From Candidatus Undinarchaeales archaeon (GTDB lineage Archaea > SpSt-1190 > JASMDC01), in the NCBI GenBank assembly GCA_030753015.1, contig JASMDC010000017.1, positions 8,662 to 72,661 of the forward strand: a stretch of 64,000 nucleotides of DNA, in the 5' to 3' direction. Below, one piece after another: positions 8,285-51,444 of the stretch. Numbering within the stretch: position 1 is the first letter of the stretch; each line of letters opens with the position of its first letter. The position numbers and the translations under genes are program-made. The notes under the pieces were generated by a model, which saw nothing but the letters and a program-made list of their open reading frames with translations, had not been told where the DNA came from and did no database searches.

Positions 8285-8998
8285 TCATCCGACGGTCACT
8301 GTCAGCTCACTTTGCATGAGGTGACGGTAGTTACCGCCAGCGTCCGACGTGCACTGGGCCGGCTCGCAGAATGCGCAATCACCACTGGTGAAAAGGCACA
8401 AATCGACGGCGAACGTCCTAGTCCCCGCAGTGGTGTTGGCCGGGAGCGTGAGCATCAATTTGGCGAACCCGGACTTGTGGCCTTCCACCGCGATAGTGGG
8501 CTTACCCGAGAACCAGTCCTCTCCCGCGAAGGTCTCATCCTCCTTCGGATGCAGATTGACGCAGAAGCATCGCTGGTCCAGGTCGTCGTTCTTGACCGCC
8601 ACGTAAAGGGAGCGTGGAGTTGCATTGGAGGCGACTTCCATATTGGTGGCCTCTAATACTATCAGCTCGTTCGACTTCCGCAGTTCATCCTCAAGGCGTT
8701 CCCGACGCTCGGCATCTGCACGGGCCTCGGGATCGAGGTTATCATCGGTCTCGAACTGAGCACCTGTGATCCACTTCATGAACGGCGGGATGAGCACCGT
8801 GACCATGATGAGGACGATTATGGCGATGAGCGTCTTGATGATGCGTGGCGGCATCTCGGTATCATCGCCTGAGAGAGCCTGTGCCACCTCGGCGGAGCCG
8901 ACACCCTTCTTGATCAGCGCCTTGCGTATCTCGGCTTTGGAATGTCCACGCTCCTCGAGCGTACGGATCCAGTCACGGAGCTCTTCCTGGGACGGCAT
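8285..8998 (-). CDS. One-pass surface protein with Cys-rich CFCxN domain
   Basis: 237 residues. Residues 1-43 are the helical N-terminus shared with other proteins here (IRTLEERGHSKAEIRKAL). A membrane helix follows (about 52-75), then a charged stalk, then an external domain starting at SLYVAVKN with CFCVNLHP and ending CAFCEPAQC. The same domain occurs inside the 1186-residue protein immediately downstream ([10 protein letters not shown] ... CDTCEASNC), so the two probably arose by duplication and may work together. Both lie on the minus strand 51 bases apart. The order of the cysteines suggests disulfides outside the cell. Function unknown. Confidence 0.8.
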   Translation of the reverse strand: MPSQEELRDWIRTLEERGHSKAEIRKALIKKGVGSAEVAQALSGDDTEMPPRIIKTLIAIIVLIMVTVLIPPFMKWITGAQFETDDNLDPEARADAERRERLEDELRKSNELIVLEATNMEVASNATPRSLYVAVKNDDLDQRCFCVNLHPKEDETFAGEDWFSGKPTIAVEGHKSGFAKLMLTLPANTTAGTRTFAVDLCLFTSGDCAFCEPAQCTSDAGGNYRHLMQSELTVTVG

Positions 8999-9049
8999 CT
9001 ACCAGTTGATAAAGCCCTTAAGATTAAAAAACCGGCGTTCGGGGCACGT

Positions 9050-12000
9050 TCACCGCGTGCAGCAGCGGAACCCGAAGTTCGACTGGGAGTCGACCGGCTT
9101 GAGGTAAAGTCCCAAGCAGAAGCAACCCCTGCTGGGTGATCCGTCAGGGACTTCGCTGTGACCGCAGCCCCGGAAGAAGACGTTCCCCTCTCCACCGGAC
9201 GACGGCCGGTAGACGAGGTCGTCACCATAACGCCTCGGGTCCTTCCCGAGCAGCGTTCCAACGGTCTGGGTTGGGACGCCATCGTGCTGAAGCCACGCCT
9301 CACTGTGCACCTTGGCGTCCGTCCATTCACCGATGTTCCCGATCATATCGTGTACACCTGCGGCCGATGTGCAGTTCTCGTGAGAACCGGTCGGGCGGTT
9401 GTCGAATCCCTTGGTGTGGCACCCGTACTGTTCGTGGGACTCCTCGAAGATGAGGTCGTACCGCGTTCGGTTCAGGCCGCAGGACGCCACCCACTCGTAG
9501 TCCTTGCAAAGGTATTTCCCGGCCGCCTGGCACGCCATACGCGCCTCGTACCAGGTGACATCGGTCCACGGCAGGGCACCGGGCACCGAGGCGGCCATGC
9601 TCCCCGCCCCTCGCGATGCCTCGTACTTGTCGATGCAGAATCCACCGCACTGAGCGATGAACGCCATCCCCGACGGGCAGCTCCGAGGAGGTACGGGCTC
9701 CTCGGCGCAGATGGGATCAAGGGCCACCTCCAGGCTCGGGTAGACATCGAGCTGCGCCCGGGGAAGTGCCCCCTCAGGCGGCACCCAGGGCTCCGGCGTG
9801 GCGGCCGGTCCCGGTGTCGTTGTTGGCTCGGGAGTGGGCGTGCCCTCGCCCGGTGGCCCCTCTGTCGGCTCTGGGCTGGTGCCGGGAGGCGGGGCACGGG
9901 GATCGTGGCAGCAGCGGAATCCCGTCGCCCCTTCCGAGTACGTGGGACCGCTCACCAGGTGGAGGTAGAAGCAGCCGGCCCACGCCGACATCCCCTCGAT
10001 GGGTGACGAGCGGGAGCCGCCCCGCAGGAAAGGATTCCCCTCCTTGAGCCCCGATGGATTGTGGATGATCCAGTCGTCGCCGTACCTTGCCGCCTCATCG
10101 CCGAGGTACGCACCGACGCTCCCGTCGGTACCGGCCCACGTCTCGCTGGGCACCGTTGCGTTCGTCCACTCGCGCACGTTCCCTACCATGTCGTACACGC
10201 CCTCGGCTGATACGCAGTTGAGGCGGAAACCCGAAGCGACGTTGTTGCGTCCGTGGGTGTAGCACCCGAATCCTTCACCATGCTCCTCCTCGGTGAGTTG
10301 GTACCGTTCACCATCGAGGTTGCACGCCGCCATCCATTCGTAGTCCTTACACAGGTGCTTACCCGCGGCCTCGCAGGCGTGCGATGCCTCCTCCCAGGTG
10401 ATGCTGGCCCATGGCAGAGCGCCCTCCCGGGACGTTGCGGCCCCATCCTCGCCCCTGGACGCCTCGTACTTGTCGATGCAGAATCCACCGCACTGGTCGA
10501 TGAACGCCATCGCCTCGGGGCACGGCAGCACTTCGGATGACGGCTCAGAGCACACAGGGTCCAATGCGACCGTGAGATCCGCGTAGTTGTCGAGTTCTTC
10601 CCGTGGCCACGGTCCATGCCCCTCTGGGGGACCGGGCGTGGCCGTCGGTCCGCTGCCTGGTGGCTCGTCAACCGGTTTGGAGGAGGGATCGAGCGGATCG
10701 GTCCCAGCGTCCACCTCCTCGCCATCGGAGGCGCCATCGTCGTCGGTGTCCTCGTCGTTTGGATCGGTCCTGTGCTCCTTCTCGACATCGTTGGTCAGTC
10801 CGTCCTCGTCAGGGTCCTCGGTGCCCGCGTCCTCTGGCGTGCTGGAGGGATCGAGCGGATCGGTCCCGGCGTCCACCTCCTCGCCATCGGAAGCGCCGTC
10901 GTCGTCGGTGTCCTCGTCGTTTGGATCGGTCCCGTGCACCCGCTCGGTCGCGTTTGTTAGCCCGTCGCCATCAGGATCGTCACTGGCGCCACCGTCGACA
11001 GGGGGCTCGGCGACCTCCTCCTCGCAGTCCGCATCGGTGCCAACGTCACAGCCCAGGGGGCAGACCCCGTCCCCGCCACGGCATCCCGGACCAGTGGTCT
11101 GGTTCCCGAAGTCCAGCTCGTACCGCTCGGTTGCGTACAAGCTGTAGCCAGCCTCGTCCGTACCCGGGTGGCAATTAGACGCTTCGCACGTGTCGCAGTC
11201 CTCTGAGGTGAGGGTGCATACGTGGATCGTGAGATTCCACGAGCCAGCGGGCATCTCCTTCGGGAGCGTCAGGTCGATTCTTGGGAAGCCGATCCTGTCA
11301 CCCGCCACACGTGTGGTGGTCACACCCAGGAAGAACGGAACCCGGTCGGTGCGCCCGAGGTTGGGATTGATACAGAAGCATGTTTCTTTGCTCTCTTCGT
11401 TGGCGAGGGCCATGATGATCTGCCGCAAGGGGACCTCGCTGGAAATAGTATCCTTCGGTTCGATGTCCAATGCGATCAATGATCCCGTGACCGCCAGTTC
11501 CTGACTGATCCGCTCCTCCACCACCTTCGCGTCCACATCCTCGGGTGTGGGCGTGGGGGTCTCCGGTGCCTCATAGACGCACGAGGCCGACACCCAGTCG
11601 CCGATGGTCACGCATTCACCCGTCTTGGCGTCGACCGTACACGACACGGTGCCCACCGCAGTGCCGGCCTGGATCCGCTCCAGGAGACGTGTCAGTTCCC
11701 GGGTGCCCTCGAAGGTGCAGCTGACAACGACGTCCACGAGCCGGCCGGCCTGATCGACGACCCGACGTTGTTCCTTTACGAGGTCATCGGGTGTCACACC
11801 TGAAGCGAACAAGGATTCCACGGCGACGTCATCGTAATCGGCCTCGACCTTGCTGAGCACCTTGGTGAGCGTGCACCCGCCGGCGGGAGCCACTTCAATG
11901 GAATAAGAGACCGTGGTCGTCCGATGTAGGTGGGGCTGGACCTCGATGGTGACAGTGTGATCGATGGACGCCGTGCGGCAGGTCCTCGAGGCCTCTATGA

Positions 12001-12610
12001 AGCACGTGAAGTCCGTACCGCATCCGATGGGGGTCCGGTCCTCGATACGACAATCGGCGTCGTCGGAATCGGTGCAGCCCTCGGGACAGCGGCCGTCGCC
12101 GTCACGACATCGAGGGACGGGAGTGTGGACGCACTCCATGGGATGGCCCGTGCACTCGTCCCTTGTATCGGGATCACTGTCGTCGCAGTCGTCGTCAGAG
12201 CAGCACTCGGACTCTCTACATACGGTCCCGTCGACGTACTGGCACGGGGCGCACTGGGGGCCGGTGCACGCGTCATCGATGCAGGTCTGGTCGCCGGGAC
12301 AACCGGCATCACGGCAGCACGTCGTGGACATCTCACCGGGTTCACTGATGCCGTTGCCGCACTGTGGGCCTGTAAAGTGGCCGCCCAGGGCGACAGCACT
12401 GATGACGATGACGACGACGGCAATGGCGACGAGCTGACCGATGGTCACACTTGAGTGAGCGGGGACTTTTGGCGGGGGGCCGTACAGGGCGCGGGCCACG
12501 ACGTCCGGCGGGAATCCCTTGTACTGCACCAGGTAGTAGTTGATTTGCTGAGGATTGTACCCGTTGCTTCGGAGATATTCCACCCATGCCTCCACCTGAC
12601 CTTCGGGCAT
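9050..12610 (-). CDS. Giant surface protein with Cys-rich, TSP3-like and two FGE/SUMF1-like domains
   Basis: 1186 residues. In order: helical N-terminus (1-44, [14 protein letters not shown]), membrane helix (about 54-77), a Cys/Asp-rich segment (about 80-200), a beta-rich region (200-350), the CFCxN domain shared with the neighbouring gene (about 405-505), two thrombospondin type 3-like calcium-binding repeats of DPDGDGL and [12 protein letters not shown] (about 547-645), an FGE-sulfatase domain (about 680-905), a Thr/Pro linker and a second FGE-sulfatase domain (about 960-1186). Both FGE domains show [19 protein letters not shown] or CKDYEWVA, and a terminal GFRCC. Such domains in surface proteins often bind ligands rather than act as formylglycine enzymes. 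A weak TATA (12635-12642) supports the start. Confidence 0.88.
10682..10770 (-). repeat. Direct repeat copy 1 encoding TSP3-like unit
   Basis: About 89 bases nearly identical to 10844-10932, offset 162 bases (54 codons), encoding the acidic [18 protein letters not shown] unit. An internal coding duplication, not a mobile element. Confidence 0.85.
10844..10932 (-). repeat. Direct repeat copy 2 encoding TSP3-like unit
   Basis: Second copy of the 89-base unit at 10682-10770, differing at only a few positions and in the same reading frame. The low divergence implies recent duplication or gene conversion. Confidence 0.85.
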
Positions 12611-12678: not shown

Positions 12679-13434
12679 CTACATCTTCGCGCCGCACCGG
12701 GCGCAGAAGGCGGTCCTTCGCTTGTTGACGAACCCACAGGTATTGCAGGGGAATCCCTCAGGGCCCTTGTCCTCTTCAAATTCCTCATCATCGGTCGGCT
12801 CGGGTGGTGGTCTCACGGCCTCGCCCACGGGGGAGATACGCTCAGCGATGCTGCCACCACTAGCTGCCGGGGGAGGCTCCGGTTGTGCCATGGCTCCCCC
12901 ATACTCGTATCCCTCGGATGTCGTGCTCGGCTCTTTCTGAGGTGCTGCGAGCTGTTCCTCAAGGGCATCGATCCGTGCTGCGAGCTCTTTGATGCGTTCG
13001 GCCGTTTCAGCAGCGCCAGCGCCAGCGGCGTCAAGGCCGTCGTGCGACTCGGTCCGCGCCGTCTCTAGCGCCCCGGTCAGTTCGTCCACGCGCTTCTTCA
13101 GGTCAAGCTCCTCGCTCTCCACACGGGAGAGCGTCTCCAGCTCCTCCTTGGAAAGGTGGGCCTCCACGGGGGCCGCTGGCTTCTCGGTTTTTGGAACCTC
13201 CGCTGGTGCATGGTGTACAACGACCTCCTCATCGTCAGAATCACCCGCGGTAGATGGGAGCATCAGGGCGCTTCCCAGACCTGCGAGGGCTAACAGTGCT
13301 CCGACACCTATGAGGAACGTGGCCTTGAAGTCCATGACCATCTTCTCCACGCCCAGCATGAGCATGACGATGCCCACGGCAAGGATGGCAGGGGGAAGGA
13401 TGGCGAGGATGCGCCGTGGATCCGGTGCTGACAT
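12679..13434 (-). CDS. Two-pass membrane protein with coiled coil and C-terminal zinc ribbon
   Basis: 251 residues starting at an ATG directly abutting the TAG stop of the upstream E2-like gene, so the two are co-transcribed and probably translationally coupled. Two membrane helices (about 10-30 and 38-59) are followed by an acidic linker, a coiled coil (about 90-165), a Pro-rich stretch and a terminal zinc ribbon CNTCG ... CARCG (about 230-250). The zinc ribbon and coil would face the cytoplasm. By position it is the best candidate membrane anchor or partner for the tandem E2-like protein. I do not recognise a named family. Confidence 0.78.
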   Translation of the reverse strand: MSAPDPRRILAILPPAILAVGIVMLMLGVEKMVMDFKATFLIGVGALLALAGLGSALMLPSTAGDSDDEEVVVHHAPAEVPKTEKPAAPVEAHLSKEELETLSRVESEELDLKKRVDELTGALETARTESHDGLDAAGAGAAETAERIKELAARIDALEEQLAAPQKEPSTTSEGYEYGGAMAQPEPPPAASGGSIAERISPVGEAVRPPPEPTDDEEFEEDKGPEGFPCNTCGFVNKRRTAFCARCGAKM

Positions 13435-15279
13435 CTAACGGAACACCCCCATGACCTTGTCAAGCAGCCCTTTCTTCGCTTCGGGGCGCAGGGTCTTCAC
13501 CAGCTTGGCCACGGTCTTGAGGTCCGTCCGCCTGAAGTGCTTCTGGGTTATGAACTCCTCCTTCACTCGACCGTCGGTCTCGACGTTGTCGTTGATGAAT
13601 GGTTTGGGATCAACGACTGACACCCTGGGGGGTGAGAGGGGGTAGTTCTGTGAGAGGCGGACCTCGTAGTGCACCTTCTTGAGCTGGGCGCCATATAGCG
13701 CCTTATACTCTCCGCTCCAGAGGTAGATGTTGTTCGCGAGCGGCTTGAACGTGGTGACCATATCGGAGACGAGGATGTTCCCGATCTCCTCGAAGAACTC
13801 CTCGGAGCTGGTGATCTCGAACTTACGTACCCTCAGACGCTCCTTCACGAGCTCCAATGCCTCGCACAGGCTCATATCACCCTCCCATTCCAGGCCAGAA
13901 CCGGGGTGGCCGAAGAGTACGAGCCCGGTAGGGGAATGGATGGCGCCGAAGAGGAGGATCCGCTCGGTGACATCGAGCCGGGAGTCGAACTTGATCATAG
14001 GAGGGGTCTGCGGGAAGTACGGATCCACCAGGACCACGGCCTCGTAGGTGCGGCTGGTCAACACTCCTTCACCTTTGATGGTCACCGTCCAGCCCCCCAG
14101 GACCTCCCTGTTCAGGTCCTGTGCGTACTGTCCCACCTCGTTGTCGGGGATCTGGGTGATGGAAGGCTCGTACTTCTCGAGGTAGCCCGCCTCGTAGGAG
14201 AGACGGGTCGTAGGGTCCATGGAGACAAGGTCTGTGCGCTTGAGGGCACGGATGTCCTCAAGGACCTCAACGATATGGGTCTCCTCGGTCCATGTTGACG
14301 TGAGCCGGGGGATTACTACCGAGCCCCCCACGTCGATATGATCATTGGGGAACACGTTACGAAGGGACACGCGCGGGGGAACCCGGGGGAATTCCTTGGG
14401 CACGTCCACGGCAAGGTCGAGCGTGATGCCCTGATGGGTCGTCACCGGCCCCTCCCATCGCTCCACGTTGCCCTTCACGGGGCGCAGCTGGCTCTGACGC
14501 AGGAGCTGATAGGTCTCCAGGTACAGCCGCGGTACCTCGCGGTGCACGCGCTCGATGCGACGGCGCAGGGCATCCAGCACACCGCTCAGATCGGGATCCT
14601 TGCTCCACTGGTACGTGGCCAGGTTCTCGAGCTTGGCATAGCCCTCCTCGTCAGTTAGACGGGGATGGACGATCCCTACACGCACTGAGGGGGGGCTCTT
14701 GGGATACCCCTGGGGGAGCTTCACGACCACTTTCTCGCTCTCCAGACGCCCCGTGAACGTGGCCTTGCCGGACTCCTGGAATCCCTGCTTGAGCAGCAGA
14801 CGCCGGTCCTTCCCGGCCTCGACACGTTCCCCGATATCGTCTAGGCGCGTGTAAATGAACTCGCCCGGAGGTATCTGCTCCTCGAACGAGTAACTGTCCA
14901 GGGTGAACCGCGCCGGTGAGCGTGGATAGCCAGGAGGTAGTAGCACCTCCATCCGCTTTCCCTTGTGCTTTCCTGTGAGCGTGACCCCGCTGGCATCCTC
15001 CTTGTGCGAGAATCCCTCCTCGTGCAGGAATGAGACCTCGAGCGTCTTCTTGATCTCGCCGTCAAGGAACTGGGCGAGCGGAAGGCCGTCGGGGATGGGG
15101 ACATTCCGGTTCACTCCCCCGCCGGAGATGCTCGCGCTCTTGGTGCCCTCCACCTGGAGCTTCACCTGGACCGTCTTGCCATGGAACTCACCACGGAGGT
15201 CGTAGATGGAGTCGCCGACGAACGAGAATCCGCTCCCACGGAGCTGATGGATCTCGCGGAGGATACGTGGATCGGGCAT
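13435..15279 (-). CDS. Tandem UBC/E2-like (UEV-like) repeat protein without catalytic cysteine
   Basis: 614 residues from the ATG at 15279. Five strand-turn motifs of the E2 type, [YF]P-x2-P-[PA], recur near residues 116, 191, 296, 420 and 546 (GYPRSPA, GYPKSPP, EFPRVPP, YFPQTPP, NYPLSPP). The third repeat is clearest: WEGPVTT before the motif, then VFPNDHIDVGGSVVIPRL, which aligns with the E2 HPN-x-G-x-ICL loop but with Val in place of the active cysteine, then W-x-EETHIVEVLEDI matching the E2 C-terminal helices. The only cysteine lies in a helix (MSLCEALEL). The protein is soluble. It looks like a scaffold of inactive ubiquitin-conjugase folds. The open frame extends to 15546, but the upstream part overlaps another gene; the TATA at 15301-15308 supports 15279. 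Confidence 0.8.
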   Translation of the reverse strand: MPDPRILREIHQLRGSGFSFVGDSIYDLRGEFHGKTVQVKLQVEGTKSASISGGGVNRNVPIPDGLPLAQFLDGEIKKTLEVSFLHEEGFSHKEDASGVTLTGKHKGKRMEVLLPPGYPRSPARFTLDSYSFEEQIPPGEFIYTRLDDIGERVEAGKDRRLLLKQGFQESGKATFTGRLESEKVVVKLPQGYPKSPPSVRVGIVHPRLTDEEGYAKLENLATYQWSKDPDLSGVLDALRRRIERVHREVPRLYLETYQLLRQSQLRPVKGNVERWEGPVTTHQGITLDLAVDVPKEFPRVPPRVSLRNVFPNDHIDVGGSVVIPRLTSTWTEETHIVEVLEDIRALKRTDLVSMDPTTRLSYEAGYLEKYEPSITQIPDNEVGQYAQDLNREVLGGWTVTIKGEGVLTSRTYEAVVLVDPYFPQTPPMIKFDSRLDVTERILLFGAIHSPTGLVLFGHPGSGLEWEGDMSLCEALELVKERLRVRKFEITSSEEFFEEIGNILVSDMVTTFKPLANNIYLWSGEYKALYGAQLKKVHYEVRLSQNYPLSPPRVSVVDPKPFINDNVETDGRVKEEFITQKHFRRTDLKTVAKLVKTLRPEAKKGLLDKVMGVFR

Positions 15280-15328: not shown

Positions 15329-18199
15329 TCACGCCGGAATGCACTGTCGCGGTAGTATCCAGGATCCTGGATTGCGTGCGAAGTACACGGCCCGAGTGGC
15401 ATTGTGCTCGAACAGTACACCGCTACGCTCGGTGATGACAGAAACGGTGAGCTCTTCCCATCCCTCCAATGCCTTATCGCAGAATCGGAACGGTTCAAGG
15501 TGGACGAGGTAGCCGCCGGGTGCCGATGTGACGTACAGCGACTCACGAACGGATCCGCCCAGATATGCCCGCACCGTCCGGGCAGCAGGGACTATATCGC
15601 GACCCGCCACGGACACAAGCACGTCCATGTCGAAGCCCCACGCCTGGAGCACTTGGTAGATGGGCTCCTCACGCGAGCCCGGTCGTACCTCTTCGATGGT
15701 CAGACGCGTCTCCCCGGGGGCTACGAGAGTGATATGGTCATTTCCGCTTCCCGTGCGGCCCAGACGTGCCACGCTGACATCCACGGTGGCGCGGCCAGCG
15801 CTCAGGGAGCCGGAGACCACGAGCGTCAGCACCCACTGACGCAAAGCGGGCACGTAACGCATGGAGAACACCCGCGCCTCCGTACCGCGGACGGAGGCCC
15901 GCACGTCATCGCGTGTAAGGGTTGTGACGGGAGTCCCGTCCCGGGCGTCCACCACGGAGACGTAGGCATGAAGGAACGCACCCTGTTGTGCTTCCTTGAG
16001 TGGGACAGTCCTGGGTTCGAGGGACTGTACGATCACCTCGTAGCCGACGGTCATGGAACCGTACCAGAGGGGGATGGAGGACCGTGCCGCCCCCAGCTCG
16101 CCGTCGTGGACTAATTTGAGGAACAGTGGGACGGACCCTGGTGAGAGCGTCCCTGCAAGGTGGGGCGGGAGCCGGGCACGGACCCGCCAGACCTCGTCCC
16201 GCCACGCCACCTCCACGTTCTCTGGAGGGAGCGGGAGGTCGCCCACGACAAGTGTGATCGAATCGGCCGAGATCCCTCTGGAGATCGGACGACTCTGCAG
16301 GCGCACCGAGAGGTCGAGGCTGACGACCACCTCGCCAGTGGCCAGGGTGTCCATGTCCAACGCTTCGGGCCGGACGTCCTCCACATGGACCGAGAGACCT
16401 TCCGGTGAGCAGCCATCCTCGCGACATATCTCGCCCGGACCGCAGACGTGACCGAACGAGGTCTCTTCGTCCGTGCACAGGCAATGGGACGGGCACAGTT
16501 CCCACGGGAGAAGGGCCGGGATCCGTTGGAGTCCAACGCGCGCCACACGCTCGCCGTCCTCCATCGCTACGACGAAAGGTGGTTCGTCCCCGCCGCCGGC
16601 GCATCCGCTGGCCGTGCACTGCTGACCGTGCTCGCACACGTCCGCCAACCGACCGTCCTCGGTGAAGCACGCGCACACCGGGTGGCGGTCGGAGGCCGGT
16701 ACGCACCGCCCGCCGGGGCCCATGCAGCGAAGTGTGATGTCCCTCGTGCCCAGTATTCCGTCGCGGCACAGGCGATCGTAATCGGTACCCCTGAGGCCGG
16801 TGGGCACCCACGGCTCGACCTCGAGCGGAACTGTGTGAACGCCCGATTCGTCGCCACGGAACGCCGTGAGACGGAGCTGGTAATGGCCGGGCGGGACCGT
16901 CTCGGGGAGCGTGAAGGCGATCTTACCGCAGGGATAGGTACGGCGGACGAGGATGCGCTCCTCCGTCCCGGTGTAGTTGATCAGCGCCACCTCGCACCGC
17001 TCCCCGGGTGTGTCAACCCACATGCGGACATCCTCGCCCACCATGTACGAGGGCTGCTCGAGAGTTACCGGCAGAGGCACCGACCGCCCGGGCTTAAGGA
17101 AATGGACAATGGTGTTGGCCGTGGCCGGGAGCCCCATAGGATTGAACATGGTGACCCGCACCACGTACTCTCCATCCTCGGACATTGTCGAGAGGGTGAG
17201 GGGGACGTAGAGGCAGGATGGAAGCCCGTACTGAGCGTTCACGACATCGCCCTCATGCAGCAGTTCGACAGCACAGCTCGACATGCCAGCTCCGGCGAAG
17301 GCGCCCACGACCATTGTCTCGCCGAGGAGGAAGGTGTCCGTCACACGACCGGCGCCATCACCCACTACAAGTGTCACGGGGAAGAGGCGCGGCCTGACGA
17401 GAACCTCGGCAGTGGCGTTGATCAGTTCGTTCGAATCCTTGAGCTGGAACAGGGTGTGGATGATCACAGGTGTGGCGGGGCATTGGCCCCCTTCGTACTC
17501 CTCGCATCCCATCCCCGCGGGGTCGAACTCGAGAAGGAACGACTCACAGGAAAAGCACGTGCGGGCTTGTCCAAGGGACTGACCGTCGGTGGAGAACAAT
17601 CCCCACACAGCGAACTCGACCTCATTGCCGAAGAAGAACGTCGCGATATCTCCTGCATAGTACTGATCGAGGTCGGTGAGCAGCTGGCCATTGATGATAC
17701 AGTCCTCGGTCCCGTCCTGACACTGGAGGGGGAACTCCAGGCCCACCCGCTCCTTGCGCGTGAGATGGCTGGTCGCCAGTCCCGTGGTGGGGAGGGTATA
17801 GGTGACGGTGCGTTCACCGACGTCCTCTGCCTCGTCCACGAGCAGGAACCCGCGGGGAGTGTAGGAGAACTTGAGGGTGGGTCGCAGCTCCTGGAGCGAG
17901 TACGAACGCGCCACCGTGAGCAAGGGCTCGACTGTGGTGAACCGAAGCGTGATCCTGTCACCTGTCACGTCGTAGGTGCACGCGCGTGTGTGCGCTGGCG
18001 CGAGCTGGGCGCAAGCGCGGTCGAGCACACCTGGCTTGAGTAGCGTGTCAATCAGCTCATCGCCCACGCCGTCGAGGGTTACGGTGATATGGTTGAGTGG
18101 TGAGCGTGATACATCGACCTCCTCGAGGATGGTGTCCACTACTACCGCTGTCGCGGGAGCGATCACCAGGAGCAAGGCCAGAAGGATGGCGGTCCTCAT
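15329..18199 (-). CDS. Large exported Cys-containing multidomain protein, pilin-module copy A
   Basis: 956 residues from the ATG at 18199, which forms an ATGA overlap with the stop of the pilin-like gene upstream; a GTG at 18208 is also in frame. A signal peptide (about 1-20, AILLALLLVIAPATA) leads into a long series of beta-sandwich-like segments with a central Cys-rich region (about 480-610: CACF, CEHGQQC, CPSHCLC, CGPGEIC). It is a paralog of 51445-54192: both start with an IxEEV segment after the signal, share the Cys-rich block and end in a short NPG[SD]W motif plus a final cysteine. No C-terminal anchor is visible. Probably a secreted component delivered with, or bound to, the adjacent pilin-like protein. 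Confidence 0.85.
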   Translation of the reverse strand: MRTAILLALLLVIAPATAVVVDTILEEVDVSRSPLNHITVTLDGVGDELIDTLLKPGVLDRACAQLAPAHTRACTYDVTGDRITLRFTTVEPLLTVARSYSLQELRPTLKFSYTPRGFLLVDEAEDVGERTVTYTLPTTGLATSHLTRKERVGLEFPLQCQDGTEDCIINGQLLTDLDQYYAGDIATFFFGNEVEFAVWGLFSTDGQSLGQARTCFSCESFLLEFDPAGMGCEEYEGGQCPATPVIIHTLFQLKDSNELINATAEVLVRPRLFPVTLVVGDGAGRVTDTFLLGETMVVGAFAGAGMSSCAVELLHEGDVVNAQYGLPSCLYVPLTLSTMSEDGEYVVRVTMFNPMGLPATANTIVHFLKPGRSVPLPVTLEQPSYMVGEDVRMWVDTPGERCEVALINYTGTEERILVRRTYPCGKIAFTLPETVPPGHYQLRLTAFRGDESGVHTVPLEVEPWVPTGLRGTDYDRLCRDGILGTRDITLRCMGPGGRCVPASDRHPVCACFTEDGRLADVCEHGQQCTASGCAGGGDEPPFVVAMEDGERVARVGLQRIPALLPWELCPSHCLCTDEETSFGHVCGPGEICREDGCSPEGLSVHVEDVRPEALDMDTLATGEVVVSLDLSVRLQSRPISRGISADSITLVVGDLPLPPENVEVAWRDEVWRVRARLPPHLAGTLSPGSVPLFLKLVHDGELGAARSSIPLWYGSMTVGYEVIVQSLEPRTVPLKEAQQGAFLHAYVSVVDARDGTPVTTLTRDDVRASVRGTEARVFSMRYVPALRQWVLTLVVSGSLSAGRATVDVSVARLGRTGSGNDHITLVAPGETRLTIEEVRPGSREEPIYQVLQAWGFDMDVLVSVAGRDIVPAARTVRAYLGGSVRESLYVTSAPGGYLVHLEPFRFCDKALEGWEELTVSVITERSGVLFEHNATRAVYFARNPGSWILPRQCIPA

Positions 18200-20256
18200 G
18201 CAGCGCACCCCCGTACCCCTGCTACCGGTACGAAACCGTGGTCGGTCTTCGTCGTGAACAGTGGGTCCATCACCACATCGTGCTCGCTATCCCCCTCGAT
18301 GGTTAGGACGGTGGCGACGGTGCGCACCTTGTACACAGGGGTTCCGTCCTGGTCCGTTGGTGTGGCAACGAGGATGTACCGACCAGGGAGCACCCGGGGG
18401 ACGACATACCGTCCGTCGGCGTCGGTCCGTACTTCGAGCGTCTCCAGGTCGGGATCGACGGGAAGGAGCGTCAGTCGTACCGCTGCTGGTGGCGAGCCGG
18501 GGACGAATGATAGAGGCCGCATGCCGACGATATCATTACAGGGTCCATCAGTCACAGTATCTGACCGGTGGTCGAGGCACCCCAGTGTGAGCGTGTCCGC
18601 GCACAGTATGGTTGTGTTCTCGACCACGAGCCCTGACAGGGACGCATACTGTGGGAGCTCCACATCGATCGGTCCCTGAGCAGGGAGCGCGACGTTCACG
18701 GAAGTACCGCCTACGCCCTCAGTGTCGAGGGGGACCACCGTGAGCCTGCGGATACCGCAGGGGAGGCCTGAAAGAAGGGTCTCGCCCGTCACCTCGAAGG
18801 TCAGCGCTCCACCGCACGGCTCCACTATGACCAGTGCCCGTTCTGCACCTAAAGGTCTGATCGTTGCTTCGCAGGTCCCCGTGCAGGCGAGGTCCACCTC
18901 GCGAGGGGGTCCATCGGGGGCCCTAGGGAGGATCGTGGCTCCACCTGTGACCAACCAAGGAACTATCACGAACCGCAACCGGAGGGGGCGCATGAGGGAT
19001 CCGGAGGGAAGGCGTCCGGCAGGCGTGAGATCGGTGAGCTCCACCTCGAGAGGGAACTGGATGTCGTACACGGCCCGGTAGCTCTTGTACCATGGAGCGC
19101 GACCTGAGCACAGTTCGACCGCGCATGGTCGCTCATCTCTGGCGACTCCACGCACCGTGATGGTACGTTCGCCACCGTTGACAGAGAGATTGAGGAGGGG
19201 ATAGGCGCTCGCGGCGCCCTCGCCCTTGTCACCAAGGCGGAGCCGCGCCGACCACGAGAGGGAGCGCATGAGGGCCACTGGGTCGGCAGCGTCCTCGTCG
19301 ACACCGGCTAGCTCGGCGCCAAGGCGGCTGAACAGGCGTTCGGACCGCATACGTGCAGCGAAGAGGGTAGCGGCTACGCCAAGGTCCTCTCCGATAGCTC
19401 TTCGCAGGGCCTGTTCGTCCAGGGAGACTTCGCCCTCCTCTGTCATACAGAAGCCAGGATGGCGGCGTCCTCTGGCGTCCGGAAGGGAGAACGGATCGCA
19501 GGTGAGGTCCGCAGTGGGGCCGGGCACACGGGGATCCCGCTCCATAAGGAAGGCGGCCAGGCTCTCGACTCCGCGGTACCAGAGGTTATCGACCTCGCCG
19601 GATTCTGGGCCCGCCTCGGTGTACAGTCGTGCAACGGTACGCGCGATGCGTACAAGCCGTAGGAGACGTAGCGGTAGCTCAACGGCCACTTGCTCCTTGA
19701 TGGAGGAGCTGGCCCCGCCATGGGTGATGGTCAGGGGGATCTCTGCGGAGAGGCGAACGAAGGCGTTCCCGACCTCCACGTCATTGGCCCCGAGGGAGAT
19801 GCGGTTCCTCTCAAGCTCCAATCCGTCTATCCCGTCCACGCCCGTGGCAGCGAGCTCCCGGATGTTAGCCTCCAAGCGACGAGCGACCGCCTCGCGCACC
19901 ATGGCGCGGACCACATCATCAGTGGGAAGGTTCACCACACGACCCCCGAGCACGAACACAGGGACGCCGTCCATAGATGGCTCCGGTACCGCTGAGGGTG
20001 CGAATCCTCCGCTTTGGGCGACCTCGTCCACGGCCTGTGCCAGAGATTCCCGTACCACCCCTTCCAGGATCTCGTGGAGCCGTACCGACTCGTCACGCAC
20101 TTCAACCGCCTGTCGAGTGTCCTCCTTGATATCCTGCTCGACCTGGCGGGGTGCCCGCAGGGCCAGGAACATCACCGTGACCACTAGCGCGAGCGCAACA
20201 ATGGCAAGGATAACGGTCTGACCTCTGCTGTTGAAAAGGTCCTTCCCCCTGGACAC
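18196..20256 (-). CDS. Large type IV pilin-like protein, module copy A
   Basis: 686 residues from a GTG at 20256; a TTG at 20271 is possible but lies too close to the TATA-like TTTAAT (20279-20284). The N-terminus MSRGKDLFNSRG then QTVILAIVALALVV is a class III (archaeal prepilin) signal: a short basic leader, cleavage after Gly by a FlaK/PibD-type peptidase, then a hydrophobic assembly helix. The remaining roughly 640 residues form a very large ectodomain; the C-terminal part resembles a carboxypeptidase-regulatory-type beta sandwich (DADGRYVVPRVLPGRYILVA). It is a paralog of 54185-56029. Export and assembly probably depend on the ATPase/TadC pair at 47-51 kb, as none is encoded here. Confidence 0.82.
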   Translation of the reverse strand: MSRGKDLFNSRGQTVILAIVALALVVTVMFLALRAPRQVEQDIKEDTRQAVEVRDESVRLHEILEGVVRESLAQAVDEVAQSGGFAPSAVPEPSMDGVPVFVLGGRVVNLPTDDVVRAMVREAVARRLEANIRELAATGVDGIDGLELERNRISLGANDVEVGNAFVRLSAEIPLTITHGGASSSIKEQVAVELPLRLLRLVRIARTVARLYTEAGPESGEVDNLWYRGVESLAAFLMERDPRVPGPTADLTCDPFSLPDARGRRHPGFCMTEEGEVSLDEQALRRAIGEDLGVAATLFAARMRSERLFSRLGAELAGVDEDAADPVALMRSLSWSARLRLGDKGEGAASAYPLLNLSVNGGERTITVRGVARDERPCAVELCSGRAPWYKSYRAVYDIQFPLEVELTDLTPAGRLPSGSLMRPLRLRFVIVPWLVTGGATILPRAPDGPPREVDLACTGTCEATIRPLGAERALVIVEPCGGALTFEVTGETLLSGLPCGIRRLTVVPLDTEGVGGTSVNVALPAQGPIDVELPQYASLSGLVVENTTILCADTLTLGCLDHRSDTVTDGPCNDIVGMRPLSFVPGSPPAAVRLTLLPVDPDLETLEVRTDADGRYVVPRVLPGRYILVATPTDQDGTPVYKVRTVATVLTIEGDSEHDVVMDPLFTTKTDHGFVPVAGVRGCAA

Positions 20257-20304
20257 AAGGGGCTCCTCCAAGCTAAGGTTTAATTGTGTTTCTGGCAGGA
20301 GCCC

Positions 20305-46903: not shown

Positions 46904-49207
46904 ATGGTTCGTCCGGCGGTGGCCTGCTGCGAGTTCGAGCTCGTGGGCGAGGAGAGCGGTGAGGACACGATCCGCGTGAACTGTGTGGGGTGTCCCTACG
47001 GTTCATCCCTCGAGGACAGCGAGGTCTGCATGCTCAGGACCATGAACAAGCTCTCCCAGGTGCGGACCGCGAGCCGGGTGATCCTGGCCGAGCGTCGGCT
47101 CTATGAGTACGGTCAGAACCAGACCGCCATGCTCAAGGAGATCATTCGTGTTATCGAGCAGATCCGCGCCACGCCCCAGCTCTTCAGCCCGGCGATGATG
47201 GGCACCAACAACATCCGCTGCACTCGGTGCTTCCCGGCGCGCTTCCGCTACATGCAGACCATGGTCACCGACACCCTACGCCGGGACCCGGTCTCCGCCT
47301 ACGTGGACATGCGCAGGACCATCCGACACGAGGAGATGTACGTCAAGAAGGAGGTGGGCGAGTGCCAGGCATGCACGGCCTACTACGTCTCTCGGGTGCT
47401 CAAGGTGGTACTCAACCTGTTTGAGGGCCTTCACCTCATCCGGGGATTGAAGCCCTATCTCGAGGGCCACCGCGAGGGCGACCGGAGCATCTATCAGAAG
47501 GTGCTCAAGCCGGCCATCCGCCCCAACTTCATGCTCACGCGCATGATGGCGGACTTCCCTCAGGATGCAGAGGAGGTGGATAGTTACAAGGTACCGGGCG
47601 ACATCAAGGTCACCATCCTGAAGGTCCCCGGCGCGGTCCGCTTTATTTATCATACAATGCCTCCCGAGCTCAGGCTCTCCGAGGACGAGTTCAGTGTCCT
47701 CGATATGGCCCGGCAGGTATTGGCCGCCCACAATCCCGAGAGCGCCGAGCTGCTGGACCCGGAGCGCATGCGCACCACCTTCCTCGACATATCCAAGGAC
47801 CTCATCAGCGAGTTCGCGCTGCGCGAGCAGATCCAGTTCGACAGGGATCGGTTGGACGTGCTCTCCGAGGTGCTCACCCGCGAGACAACCGGGTACGGTA
47901 TCCTAGAGGTCATGCTCGCCGACGAACGGGCACAGGACCTGTCGGTGAACGCGCCGCCCGGGGAGCTGCCGGTGTTCATCTTTCACGCTGACTTCGAGGA
48001 CATGGAGTCCAACATCATCCCCACACGCGAGGAGGTGGAGAGCTGGGCCGCCCGCATGCGTCTATCGTCCGGCCGCCCCCTGGACCAGGCCAATCCCATT
48101 CTCGACACGTCCATCGAGCTGCCCTTCGCCCGCGCACGTGTGTGCGCAGTCACCCGCTCGTTGTCAGCCTATGGGCTGGCCTTCTCCATTCGGCGTCACC
48201 GGGACAATCCCTGGACCCATCCCCTGTTCATGAAGGTGAAGATGATCAACGCCCTCGGGTGTGGGCTGATGTCCTTCTTCATCGACGGCGCCCGCACCAT
48301 GCTCATATGCGGTACCCGCGGCTCGGGGAAGTCGGCGTTCCTCGGCTCGAACCTAATTGAGATCATGCGGCGTTATCGCATCATCACCATTGAGGACACC
48401 CTGGAGCTGCCTACGGTGTTCATGCGCAAGTTGGGGTTCAACATCCTCTCCATGAAGGTGGGCTCGGCGGTGGGCGGGGCATCCAGCTCCGAGCTGACGC
48501 CCGCTGACGGCATCCGGTCGTCCCTGCGTCTTGGCGACTCGGCCCTCATCCTGGGCGAGGTGCGCTCACTTGAGACGCTCGCACTTTACGAGGCCATGCG
48601 GGTCGGCGCGGCGGCCAACGTGGTGGCGGGGACCATCCACGGCGACAGCCCCTTCGGTGTGTTCGACCGTGTGGTCAACGACCTGGGGGTTCCCAAGACA
48701 TCTTTCAAGGCGACCGACATAATCGTGTTCGTACGCCCCATCCGCTCAGCGGACGGGCTGCACAAGCTTCGGCGCGTCACCGAGATCGTGGAGGTTGGCA
48801 AGGAATGGGTGGACGATCCCGAGCGGGAGAACGCCTTTCATACCCTCATGGAGTACGACACCAAGAAGGATGAGATGATTCCCACCTCCACCCTCATCGA
48901 CGGCGAGTCGGAGGCCATCTCGGCCATATCCGGAACGGTCAAGGAGTGGGTGGGCAACTTCGATGCCGTATGGGCTAACATCGAGATGCGCGCCGAGTAC
49001 AAGCGACGTATTCTCGACTACGTGACCAGGGCGAAGCTGCCACAGCTTCTCGAGGCGCCTTTCGTGGTGAGATGCAACGACATGTTCCACATCCTAGTGG
49101 GCGAGGTGACCGACGAGCTGGGGAGCGCTGTCCCGGACGAGGTGCTCGGACGCTGGACCCTGTGGCTCCGCAAGGCGATCAAGGAGGAGCGGACCCGAAA
49201 GAAGTGA
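46904..49207 (+). CDS. Type II/IV secretion (TadA/VirB11-like) ATPase
   Basis: 767 residues. The C-terminal motor has Walker A CGTRGSGKS (about 468-476), an Asp/His-box region TIEDTLELP, Walker B-like LILGEVRS and the TIHGDSPFGVFDRVV switch seen in archaeal pilus/archaellum ATPases. The N-terminal 200 residues carry CVGC (27-30), CTRC (about 105-108) and CQAC (about 153-156) pairs that could bind zinc or an Fe-S cluster. It powers assembly of type IV pilin-like fibres at the cytoplasmic face. Followed four bases later by the TadC-type gene. Confidence 0.93.
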   Translation: MVRPAVACCEFELVGEESGEDTIRVNCVGCPYGSSLEDSEVCMLRTMNKLSQVRTASRVILAERRLYEYGQNQTAMLKEIIRVIEQIRATPQLFSPAMMGTNNIRCTRCFPARFRYMQTMVTDTLRRDPVSAYVDMRRTIRHEEMYVKKEVGECQACTAYYVSRVLKVVLNLFEGLHLIRGLKPYLEGHREGDRSIYQKVLKPAIRPNFMLTRMMADFPQDAEEVDSYKVPGDIKVTILKVPGAVRFIYHTMPPELRLSEDEFSVLDMARQVLAAHNPESAELLDPERMRTTFLDISKDLISEFALREQIQFDRDRLDVLSEVLTRETTGYGILEVMLADERAQDLSVNAPPGELPVFIFHADFEDMESNIIPTREEVESWAARMRLSSGRPLDQANPILDTSIELPFARARVCAVTRSLSAYGLAFSIRRHRDNPWTHPLFMKVKMINALGCGLMSFFIDGARTMLICGTRGSGKSAFLGSNLIEIMRRYRIITIEDTLELPTVFMRKLGFNILSMKVGSAVGGASSSELTPADGIRSSLRLGDSALILGEVRSLETLALYEAMRVGAAANVVAGTIHGDSPFGVFDRVVNDLGVPKTSFKATDIIVFVRPIRSADGLHKLRRVTEIVEVGKEWVDDPERENAFHTLMEYDTKKDEMIPTSTLIDGESEAISAISGTVKEWVGNFDAVWANIEMRAEYKRRILDYVTRAKLPQLLEAPFVVRCNDMFHILVGEVTDELGSAVPDEVLGRWTLWLRKAIKEERTRKK

Positions 49208-49211
49208 TGCC

Positions 49212-51392
49212 ATGGCGGACCCACCGAAGCCTGAAGGAAGGACCATCGGGGCGGGTTCGTACTCCATCAACATGAACGAGCTCGATCAGGTCTACAACAA
49301 GTACAAGCAAGGTCCCCAGGTCCCTTTGGGCTGGGGCGCTGGTCAGCAGCAGAACACGGGGTTCGAGCGGTCTCGCTCCTTCCAGATCTTCAAGGAGGAG
49401 GAGTCCGTGCACATGGACAATCCCATCGAGAACGCCTACCGGATGGCCGGGCAGTACATCCCCATCGAGGCGCCGCCCGAGATCGCTACCTTCCTCAACA
49501 ACAGCCTGAAGATGTCCGGATTGCGGATCACGGCCAACGACGTCATGGCCCTGGCCATCGGGATCCTTATGGTAACGTTCGTCATCGGGTTCGCCATCAT
49601 CGCCGTGCCCTTCATGTGCAAGGACACGGGCATAGGCACGAAGTGCTACTCTTTGGGCGACCAGTCGGGGCTTGCAGGCATCACCGCGATCATGGCCCCC
49701 ATCGTTTTTGCTATAGCCATCATCCTCTACCCCATGTTCCGCACCACGGTGGCCAAGGTGCATATCGCAGGTACAGCGCCGCTGGCCGTGCTGTATATAG
49801 TCATCTACCTGCGCTCCTCGCCGAGCCTCGAGTCGGCGGTGGCGTTCTCCGCAAAGAACGTGACCGGTCCGCTGGGCGACGAGCTCAAGCATCTCCAGTG
49901 GGGGGTGGCGACGCGCGAGTTCCCTGACACCCAGCAGGCCCTGGTGCAGTTCAGCGAGAAGGTGCAGGACTGGGCGCCGGGCATCTCCGATGCCTTCTAT
50001 CTCATAGCCGGTTCGACCCAGCAGCCTACGCCTGAGAAGCGGGTAGAGATGCTCGATAAAGCGGTCAATGGCGCCCTCACGTCCACCCGCCACACCATGC
50101 AGCAGTTCGGTCGCTCGCTCCAGATGCCCGCCATCGTGGTGAACGCCCTGGGTATCCTGCTACCGGTCATGGGGCTCGTGATGGCCCCCATCGTCACGAT
50201 CATGCTCTCTGACGGCGGAGGTGTGGATATAACCCTCGCTGTGCTCTATAATGTCATCCTACCGGCGATCATCCTGATGATCATCTACGTCCTGGGGAGC
50301 CGTCGTCCGGGCTCGTTCTCCAGTGTCGACGTGTCAAAGCATCCCGACGCCCCCAAGCCGGGCTGCTACAGGCTCTCGATGGGTAGCTCGACCTATGACA
50401 TCCCACTGCTCCCCATCTCACTGCTGATATTTGTCCTGGGCGCGGCCTACAGCGGTGCCTTCCTTATCAACGAGTACGTGCTCGGATCCGGCGCTGACGC
50501 GACCGCGCTCCAGGATGCGACCCGGGCCTTCCAGACCATGCCCATCATCGTATGCTCAGGTTTGGCCATCGGTATCTACGGGATCGGCATGTCCTCGCAG
50601 CGCATGTCCATCCGCAACCACATCAAGGACACTGAGAAGGAGTTCTCCTCGGCCCTATACCAACTTGGGAACATCATGAACCAGGGCCAACCCTTCGAGA
50701 TCGCCGTCACTCGTGCGGGGGAGATCATGTCCACGTCGGTCATGCGGCCGTTCCTGTTGTCCATCGCCCGCAACATCCAGCAGCTGGGCATGCCCTTGCA
50801 CCAGGCCGTGTACGATCCTGAGTACGGCGCCCTGCGATACTGCCCTTCAGACCTGGTGGCCAACGTGCTGGAGATCGTCTTGGATTCCACCAAGCGGGGA
50901 GTGCGCATTGCGGCCACGACCACCATGAACATCGCCACCTACCTGGACAACATCGAGGAGGTGTCCACCGAGATCGAGGGCCTGCTCTCCGAGTCCATGT
51001 CCAGCATGAAGTTCCAGGCCTACCTCCTCGCCCCCGTGGTGTGCGGAATCATCGTCGGGCTCTCGCAGATGATCACGGGTATCCTTGCAGGTGTTGGGCA
51101 GAAGGTGGACGAAGGCGGCCTGGGAGGTCAGATGTCGGGCGGCGGGATGGGTGGTGCCTTCAGCGCCGAGAACGCAGTGCCCCCCGACCGGCTTCAGCTC
51201 ATCGTCGGCATCTACATCGTCCAGCTACTGTCCATCCTCGGCTACTTCTGTGCCCTCCTAGAGAGCGGGCCCAATGACACGGTGGCCATGTACCAGAGCA
51301 TAGGGCAGACGGTGCTCATAGGTACTATTGTGTACAGCTCCGTCTGCATCGTCACCACACTGGTGTTCGCCGGGATGGCCACGTTCGTTTAG
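49212..51392 (+). CDS. TadC-type type II secretion system F membrane platform
   Basis: 726 residues. Several membrane helices fall into two halves: the first around 110-200 with an early cytoplasmic segment (YRMAGQYIPIEAPPEIA), the second after 380, each with a T2SSF-type helical domain; the C-terminal one shows FSSALYQLGNIMNQGQPFE, LGMPLHQAVYD and a helix-rich SESMSSMKFQAYLLAPVVCG. This is the membrane core of archaeal pilus/archaellum machines and partners the ATPase encoded just upstream in the same operon. Confidence 0.9.
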   Translation: MADPPKPEGRTIGAGSYSINMNELDQVYNKYKQGPQVPLGWGAGQQQNTGFERSRSFQIFKEEESVHMDNPIENAYRMAGQYIPIEAPPEIATFLNNSLKMSGLRITANDVMALAIGILMVTFVIGFAIIAVPFMCKDTGIGTKCYSLGDQSGLAGITAIMAPIVFAIAIILYPMFRTTVAKVHIAGTAPLAVLYIVIYLRSSPSLESAVAFSAKNVTGPLGDELKHLQWGVATREFPDTQQALVQFSEKVQDWAPGISDAFYLIAGSTQQPTPEKRVEMLDKAVNGALTSTRHTMQQFGRSLQMPAIVVNALGILLPVMGLVMAPIVTIMLSDGGGVDITLAVLYNVILPAIILMIIYVLGSRRPGSFSSVDVSKHPDAPKPGCYRLSMGSSTYDIPLLPISLLIFVLGAAYSGAFLINEYVLGSGADATALQDATRAFQTMPIIVCSGLAIGIYGIGMSSQRMSIRNHIKDTEKEFSSALYQLGNIMNQGQPFEIAVTRAGEIMSTSVMRPFLLSIARNIQQLGMPLHQAVYDPEYGALRYCPSDLVANVLEIVLDSTKRGVRIAATTTMNIATYLDNIEEVSTEIEGLLSESMSSMKFQAYLLAPVVCGIIVGLSQMITGILAGVGQKVDEGGLGGQMSGGGMGGAFSAENAVPPDRLQLIVGIYIVQLLSILGYFCALLESGPNDTVAMYQSIGQTVLIGTIVYSSVCIVTTLVFAGMATFV

Positions 51393-51410
51393 GGCGGCCT
51401 CGGCGCAGGA

Positions 51411-51418
51411 TTTATATA
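51411..51418 (+). promoter_or_regulatory. TATA-like box of pilin module copy B
   Basis: TTTATATA about 30 bases before the ATG at 51445; it gives the exported protein/pilin pair its own promoter after the ATPase-TadC operon and rules out the longer start at 51328. Confidence 0.65.
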
Positions 51419-51444
51419 TTGCACGCGCCTCCTCTTCTATCGAG

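What the first reader, a model, noticed from the sequence alone, without database searches (positions are those of the whole stretch)
13435..15279. Archaeal protein built of about five tandem catalytically dead E2/UBC-like folds
Five [YF]P-x2-P-[PA] motifs at intervals of about 75-126 residues, each at the end of beta-rich segments, match the E2 core. The third repeat aligns with W-x-GP-x-T, HPN-x-G and the C-terminal helices, but the active cysteine is Val. UEV-type E2 variants are single-domain; a string of five in one archaeal chain would be a new architecture, perhaps a scaffold or remnant of a ubiquitin-like pathway.
Basis: partly seen in the sequence, partly recalled or inferred. Interest (0 to 1): 0.9.

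Follow-up and report, generated by a model that had tools for sequence, protein, structure and literature searches.

The report
Archaeal chain of inactive E2-like folds
An archaeon that also carries genes for a ubiquitin-like tagging system encodes one protein made of at least four, probably five, copies of the fold of ubiquitin-conjugating enzymes, none able to do the chemistry, so it most likely holds partner proteins together rather than acting as an enzyme.

Summary
Window 13435-15279 (-) encodes an intact 614-residue protein with [YF]PxxP motifs at residues 118, 192, 297, 422 and 546. Pfam UQ_con matches at E 3e-23 in four stretches, with RWD and UEV also over cut-off. An archaeal UBC/UEV profile built without this protein scores repeats 2-5 at 22.8, 54.0, 12.6 and 15.2 bits; the best of 1000 shuffles scores 4.6. 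Repeat 1 is supported by its similarity to repeat 2. An N-terminal sixth unit is unproven. The only cysteine (C472) lies in a helix, so no repeat is catalytic. Repeat 3 is closest to Asgard ESCRT-I UEV domains. An AlphaFold model of repeats 4-5 gives repeat 5 a UBC fold; repeat 4 stays low-confidence. The same genome encodes an E1, a cysteine-bearing E2 and a JAB protease together on another contig, and a tandem ubiquitin-like protein, but no ESCRT-III. The claim that UEV variants are single-domain is wrong: eukaryotic BRE and FANCL are multi-UBC proteins. I also found an Asgard family of tandem UBC repeats plus a RING-like finger (39 of 227 genomes), not orthologous to this protein. Verdict: a real new variant of a known kind (multi-UEV/RWD scaffold); function inferred only.

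The parts
13435..15279 (-). 614-aa tandem UBC/UEV-RWD-like protein (P0001), no catalytic Cys
   Evidence: coding-like third-position GC
15028..15279 (-). N-terminal region (residues 1-84), possible degenerate sixth UBC unit; unproven
   Evidence: Only 1.6 bits to the UBC profile over residues 5-38; z 2.95 to repeat 1
14845..15027 (-). Repeat 1 (residues about 85-145), motif YPRSPA at 118; short, without an obvious C-terminal half
   Evidence: 2.1 bits to the UBC profile but z 9.3 to repeat 2
14539..14844 (-). Repeat 2 (residues about 146-247), motif YPKSPP at 192, HP retained, Lys216 at the active-Cys position
   Evidence: UQ_con stretch; 22.8 bits
14230..14538 (-). Repeat 3 (residues about 248-350), best conserved, UEV-like; Val322 at the active-Cys position
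   Evidence: 54.0 bits; 37% identity to the UEV of L085, E 1.3e-10; matches UbcH5 E2s in PDB
13825..14220 (-). Repeat 4 (residues about 354-485), motif FPQTPP at 422, longer loop; holds the only Cys (C472) in a predicted helix
   Evidence: 12.6 bits; AlphaFold pLDDT low
13480..13824 (-). Repeat 5 (residues about 486-600), motif YPLSPP at 546
   Evidence: 15.2 bits; z 11.1 to repeat 3; model matches E2/UEV structures at Z up to 10.5
12679..13434 (-). Downstream gene, start codon directly after the stop of P0001 (TAG-ATG): two N-terminal hydrophobic segments, coiled coil, C-terminal CxxC...CxxC zinc ribbon; likely co-translated partner
15329..18208 (-). Upstream gene, 959-aa predicted secreted protein, paralogous to 51328-54192
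   Evidence: blastp E 2e-43 between the two; signal-like N-terminus
18196..20271 (-). Upstream gene, 691-aa pilin-like N-terminus, paralogous to 54107-56029
   Evidence: blastp E 1e-28

Best explanation
The protein is a non-catalytic scaffold built by repeated duplication of a UEV/RWD-like domain (the E2 fold without its active cysteine). Shown: at least four UBC-family repeats, no usable catalytic cysteine, repeat 3 close to archaeal UEV domains, and an E1-E2-JAB gene set in the same genome. Inferred: one or more repeats bind the genome's ubiquitin-like modifier, its charged E2, or modified substrates, while the other repeats bind partner subunits, as the UEV/RWD domains of BRE do around the JAMM protease BRCC36 and as Asgard UEVs bind ubiquitin. 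The adjoining membrane-anchored zinc-ribbon protein, translated from an ATG directly after the stop, would tether the assembly to the inner face of the membrane next to an envelope (type IV pilus-like) system.
For: Pfam UQ_con/RWD/UEV over cut-off; profile scores against shuffles; internal repeat similarity; repeat 3 like ESCRT-I UEVs; only one Cys, not at an active site; UBC fold for repeat 5; E1, Cys-E2 and JAB together on contig C68 and a tandem ubiquitin-like protein on C23; coupled downstream membrane/zinc-ribbon gene. Precedents: Asgard UEVs bind ubiquitin (PMC9192718); BRE is a UEV-RWD-UEV scaffold that binds ubiquitin (PMC7692841); FANCL's E2-like fold binds ubiquitin (PMC5264512).
Against: No genetic link between P0001 and the C68 conjugation genes, which are on another contig. 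The genome estimate has 5% contamination, and GC is 0.61 for the window and 0.65 for C68. No ubiquitin-binding surface could be tested at this divergence. No orthologue was found, so selection on the repeats cannot be measured. RWD folds often scaffold complexes that have nothing to do with ubiquitin. The full-length model failed (pLDDT 31), and the alignment used for the repeat 4-5 model contains UEV sequences, which favours that fold.
Confidence: 0.55

Rival explanations
1. A purely structural RWD-type scaffold of the envelope/pilus-like locus, with no role in ubiquitin-like signalling; the repeats bind the membrane zinc-ribbon protein and other local subunits, as double-RWD proteins do in kinetochores.
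For: Gene order with paralogues of the secreted and pilin-like genes found beside a T2SSE ATPase and a coupled membrane-protein gene; RWD match 3 stretches, E 3e-9; double RWDs build kinetochore complexes (PMC5264512).
Against: Repeat 3 is closer to ubiquitin-binding UEVs and E2s than expected of a drifted RWD; the genome keeps conjugation genes.
Confidence: 0.3
2. A ligase platform like FANCL with its RING supplied by a separate protein.
For: Asgard archaea carry proteins with tandem UBC repeats fused to a RING-like finger, so the combination occurs in archaea.
Against: No RING in P0001, no RING over cut-off in the genome, and no repeat-by-repeat correspondence with the Asgard family.
Confidence: 0.08
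3. A decaying duplication array without function.
For: Repeats are very divergent and no orthologue was found.
Against: Intact 614-codon frame with coding-like base composition, conserved motifs in five repeats, tight coupling to the next gene.
Confidence: 0.04

Closest known systems
BRE/BABAM2 (BRCC45) of BRISC and BRCA1-A
   Same: Single chain of several non-catalytic UBC-fold domains (UEV-RWD-UEV), a scaffold that binds ubiquitin and accompanies a JAMM/JAB protease (PMC7692841)
   Different: Three domains instead of four to six; no sequence orthology shown; P0001 has no proven JAB partner
FANCL (E2-like fold, double RWD, RING)
   Same: Tandem UBC-fold domains without catalysis in one chain (PMC5264512)
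   Different: P0001 lacks a RING and has more repeats
Asgard ESCRT-I UEV proteins (Vps23/TSG101-like)
   Same: Nearest sequence relatives of repeat 3, no active Cys (PMC9192718)
   Different: Those are single UEV domains with coiled coil, core or Vps28 parts; P0001 has none of these and its genome has no Snf7 match
Asgard tandem UBC + RING-like family (found here)
   Same: Archaeal, 550-625 aa, several cysteine-less UBC/RWD repeats in one chain
   Different: Four repeats then an RBX1-like RING finger; no orthology to P0001 repeats
Caldiarchaeum-type archaeal ubiquitin operon (PMC5654768, listed; not read in full)
   Same: The host genome clusters E1, E2 and JAB genes on C68
   Different: No RING gene found; the putative modifier was recognised by eye only

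Membership tests
Ubiquitin-conjugating enzyme E2 (catalytic) | UBC fold by sequence profile | tested here: met
   UQ_con E 3e-23, four stretches
Ubiquitin-conjugating enzyme E2 (catalytic) | Catalytic cysteine after the HPN motif | tested here: not met
   Single Cys, C472, in the C-terminal helix of repeat 4; Val or Lys at the active position of repeats 3 and 2
UEV (E2 variant) | UBC fold lacking the catalytic Cys | tested here: met
   PF05743 UEV 35.4 bits, cut-off 27; repeat 3 closest to archaeal UEVs
UEV (E2 variant) | Non-covalent ubiquitin or peptide binding | not testable with these tools
   Needs a binding assay
RWD domain | RWD profile match with YPxxxP motif | tested here: met
   PF05773 37.4 bits, cut-off 22.8, three stretches
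FANCL-like multi-UBC E3 | C-terminal RING | tested here: not met
   No RING in P0001 (only one Cys)
BRE-like multi-UEV scaffold | Several UEV/RWD domains in one chain | tested here: met
BRE-like multi-UEV scaffold | Complex with a JAMM/JAB protease | not testable with these tools
   JAB genes exist in the genome (C25, C68), no link to P0001 shown
ESCRT-I Vps23 | Coiled coil and steadiness box after the UEV, ESCRT partners in the genome | tested here: not met
   No Vps23_core match; no Snf7 match in own genome
Asgard tandem UBC + RING family | Repeat-by-repeat orthology to that array | tested here: not met
   No diagonal of matches between their four repeats and ours; whole-chain hhalign probability 4.9%

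The most novel reading that the evidence does not exclude
A dedicated polyvalent reader or assembly hub of a complete archaeal ubiquitin-like system outside the Asgard group, with a poly-UEV chain as counterpart to the tandem ubiquitin-like protein on contig C23; multi-UEV scaffolds such as BRE and FANCL would then have independent archaeal counterparts.
Probability: 0.25. Interest if true: 0.8.

Novelty: new variant of a known kind. Interest (0 to 1): 0.58.

Why it matters
Arrays of catalytically dead E2 folds are known as eukaryotic scaffolds (BRE, FANCL, kinetochore RWDs). Finding longer arrays in archaea, here in a genome with its own E1-E2-JAB genes and separately as UBC-RING chains in Asgard archaea, suggests that E2-fold scaffolding arose before or in parallel with eukaryotes, and gives small recombinant systems in which to test it.

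Tried and rejected
Full-length AlphaFold without an alignment: useless (pLDDT 31). Searches for orthologues: none in 60 sampled relatives, the GTDB collection or viral contigs; the peptide-pattern scans find close relatives only. Orthology to the Asgard tandem UBC-RING family: MAFFT seemed colinear, but hhalign and the repeat-versus-repeat matrix do not support it. In one search the rows labelled UBC failed for lack of an input file and are ignored. Domain tree: repeats 3 and 5 group together (0.83) and the rest is unresolved (the first attempt, crashed). Catalytic E2: rejected for lack of Cys. ESCRT role: disfavoured, no Snf7 match. A family or PDB sequence match for the putative C68 modifier: none convincing.

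Full report
Observation. The minus-strand frame 13435-15279 is an intact 614-codon gene. The five [YF]PxxP motifs are exact, at residues 118, 192, 297, 422 and 546. Pfam assigns UQ_con at E 3e-23 with four stretches, RWD at 3e-9 and UEV at 1e-8, all over cut-off. The genome search places the UQ_con stretches in repeats 2, 3, 4 and 5. Against a profile of archaeal UBC domains built without this protein, repeats 2-5 score 22.8, 54.0, 12.6 and 15.2 bits, whereas the best score in 1000 shuffles is 4.6; residues 5-38 and 106-136 score 1.6 and 2.1 and prove nothing alone. Internal comparison supports repeat 1 through repeat 2 (z 9.3) and links repeats 2-3, 2-5 and 3-5 (z 6.9, 8.2, 11.1); repeat 4 is weaker (z 0.3-3.2 to the others). 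I therefore count four proven repeats, a well-supported fifth, and a possible sixth at the N-terminus.

Catalysis. The only cysteine, C472, lies in the helix that ends repeat 4. In the profile alignment the active position is Val322 in repeat 3 and Lys216 in repeat 2. None of the repeats can form the thioester that defines an E2.

Nearest relatives. Single-sequence search hits UbcH5-type E2s in PDB over repeat 3 (E 6e-4). Among 227 Asgard genomes the best matches to repeat 3 are UEV proteins of the ESCRT-I type, 37% identical over about 105 residues; a scan of named genomes returned such UEVs from Borrarchaeum, Sifarchaeum and Baldrarchaeum, and catalytic-type E2s from Heimdallarchaeota. That the 227 genomes are Asgard rests on this: one of them (G120) carries the Baldrarchaeum yapensis contig (same length, same UEV). 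No orthologue of the whole chain was found.

Structure. Without an alignment AlphaFold failed. With repeats 1-3 and nine Asgard UEV/E2 rows as alignment, the repeat 4-5 segment gave repeat 5 pLDDT mostly 57-80 and repeat 4 lower values. All of the 50 best structural matches are E2 or UEV chains or complexes containing them, Z up to 10.5 over 107 residues, essentially on repeat 5. The UEV rows favour this outcome, so it is supporting and not independent evidence.

Surroundings. The gene follows a 691-aa pilin-like and a 959-aa secreted-protein gene that are paralogues of two genes downstream of a T2SSE ATPase elsewhere in the window. It is followed, with no intervening base (TAG-ATG), by a gene for a membrane protein with coiled coil and zinc ribbon.

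Pathway elsewhere in the genome. Contig C68 carries, in one run, a gene ending in LTAGGSR that I read as the modifier (inference by eye; searches give no family match), a 306-aa E2 with HPN and cysteine (GDVCLG; UQ_con 6e-12; Ubc13-like in PDB), a JAB protease, a 947-aa protein and an E1-type ThiF protein. Contig C23 has a 620-aa protein with several ubiquitin-like domains beside a tubulin/FtsZ-family gene. No Snf7 match and no RING over cut-off were found. C68 could be contamination: estimated contamination is 5% and GC is 0.65 against 0.61 in the window.

Comparison with the known. I found a further family in Asgard archaea: several cysteine-less UBC/RWD repeats plus a C-terminal finger like the RBX1 RING (E 0.003), with long matches (E below 1e-90) in 39 of 227 genomes. 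It is not orthologous to our protein, so such arrays probably arose more than once. I found no description of either in the open literature searched, which excludes most subscription journals.

Mechanism. The most likely reading is a scaffold in which one or more UEV-like repeats recognise the modifier or its charged E2 and others hold partners, perhaps at the membrane through the neighbouring protein. Fold and lack of catalysis are shown; binding, partners and location are inferred. The main rival is a structural RWD scaffold of the envelope locus.

Noticed in passing
L053:475-2226 (-), L054:6431-8092 (+), L055:5956-7611 (-): Asgard family of 550-625 aa with about four tandem cysteine-less UBC/RWD repeats and a C-terminal RBX1-like RING finger, a FANCL-like architecture; long matches in 39 of 227 Asgard genomes.
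   Followed up: partly
L008:1951-9613 (own genome, contig C68): Putative ubiquitin-like conjugation operon: candidate modifier ending LTAGGSR, E2 with active Cys, JAB, 947-aa protein, E1; the 947-aa protein and the N-terminal part of the E1 are homologous (blastp E 6e-12).
   Followed up: partly
L023:9723-11585 (+) and 8363-9646 (-): A 620-aa protein with several ubiquitin-like domains and a zinc ribbon, beside a divergent tubulin/FtsZ-family protein.
   Followed up: partly
window 46904-56029 and 15329-20271: Two paralogous sets of large secreted and pilin-like proteins, one next to a T2SSE ATPase: possible type IV pilus-like systems.
   Followed up: partly
window 9050-12610 (-): 1186-aa secreted protein with two FGE-sulfatase stretches and TSP3 repeats.
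   Followed up: no
whole genome G000: A 3.85 Mb archaeal genome whose nine held relatives of the same class are only 0.6-1.1 Mb: an unusually large member of its class, or partly contaminated.
   Followed up: no
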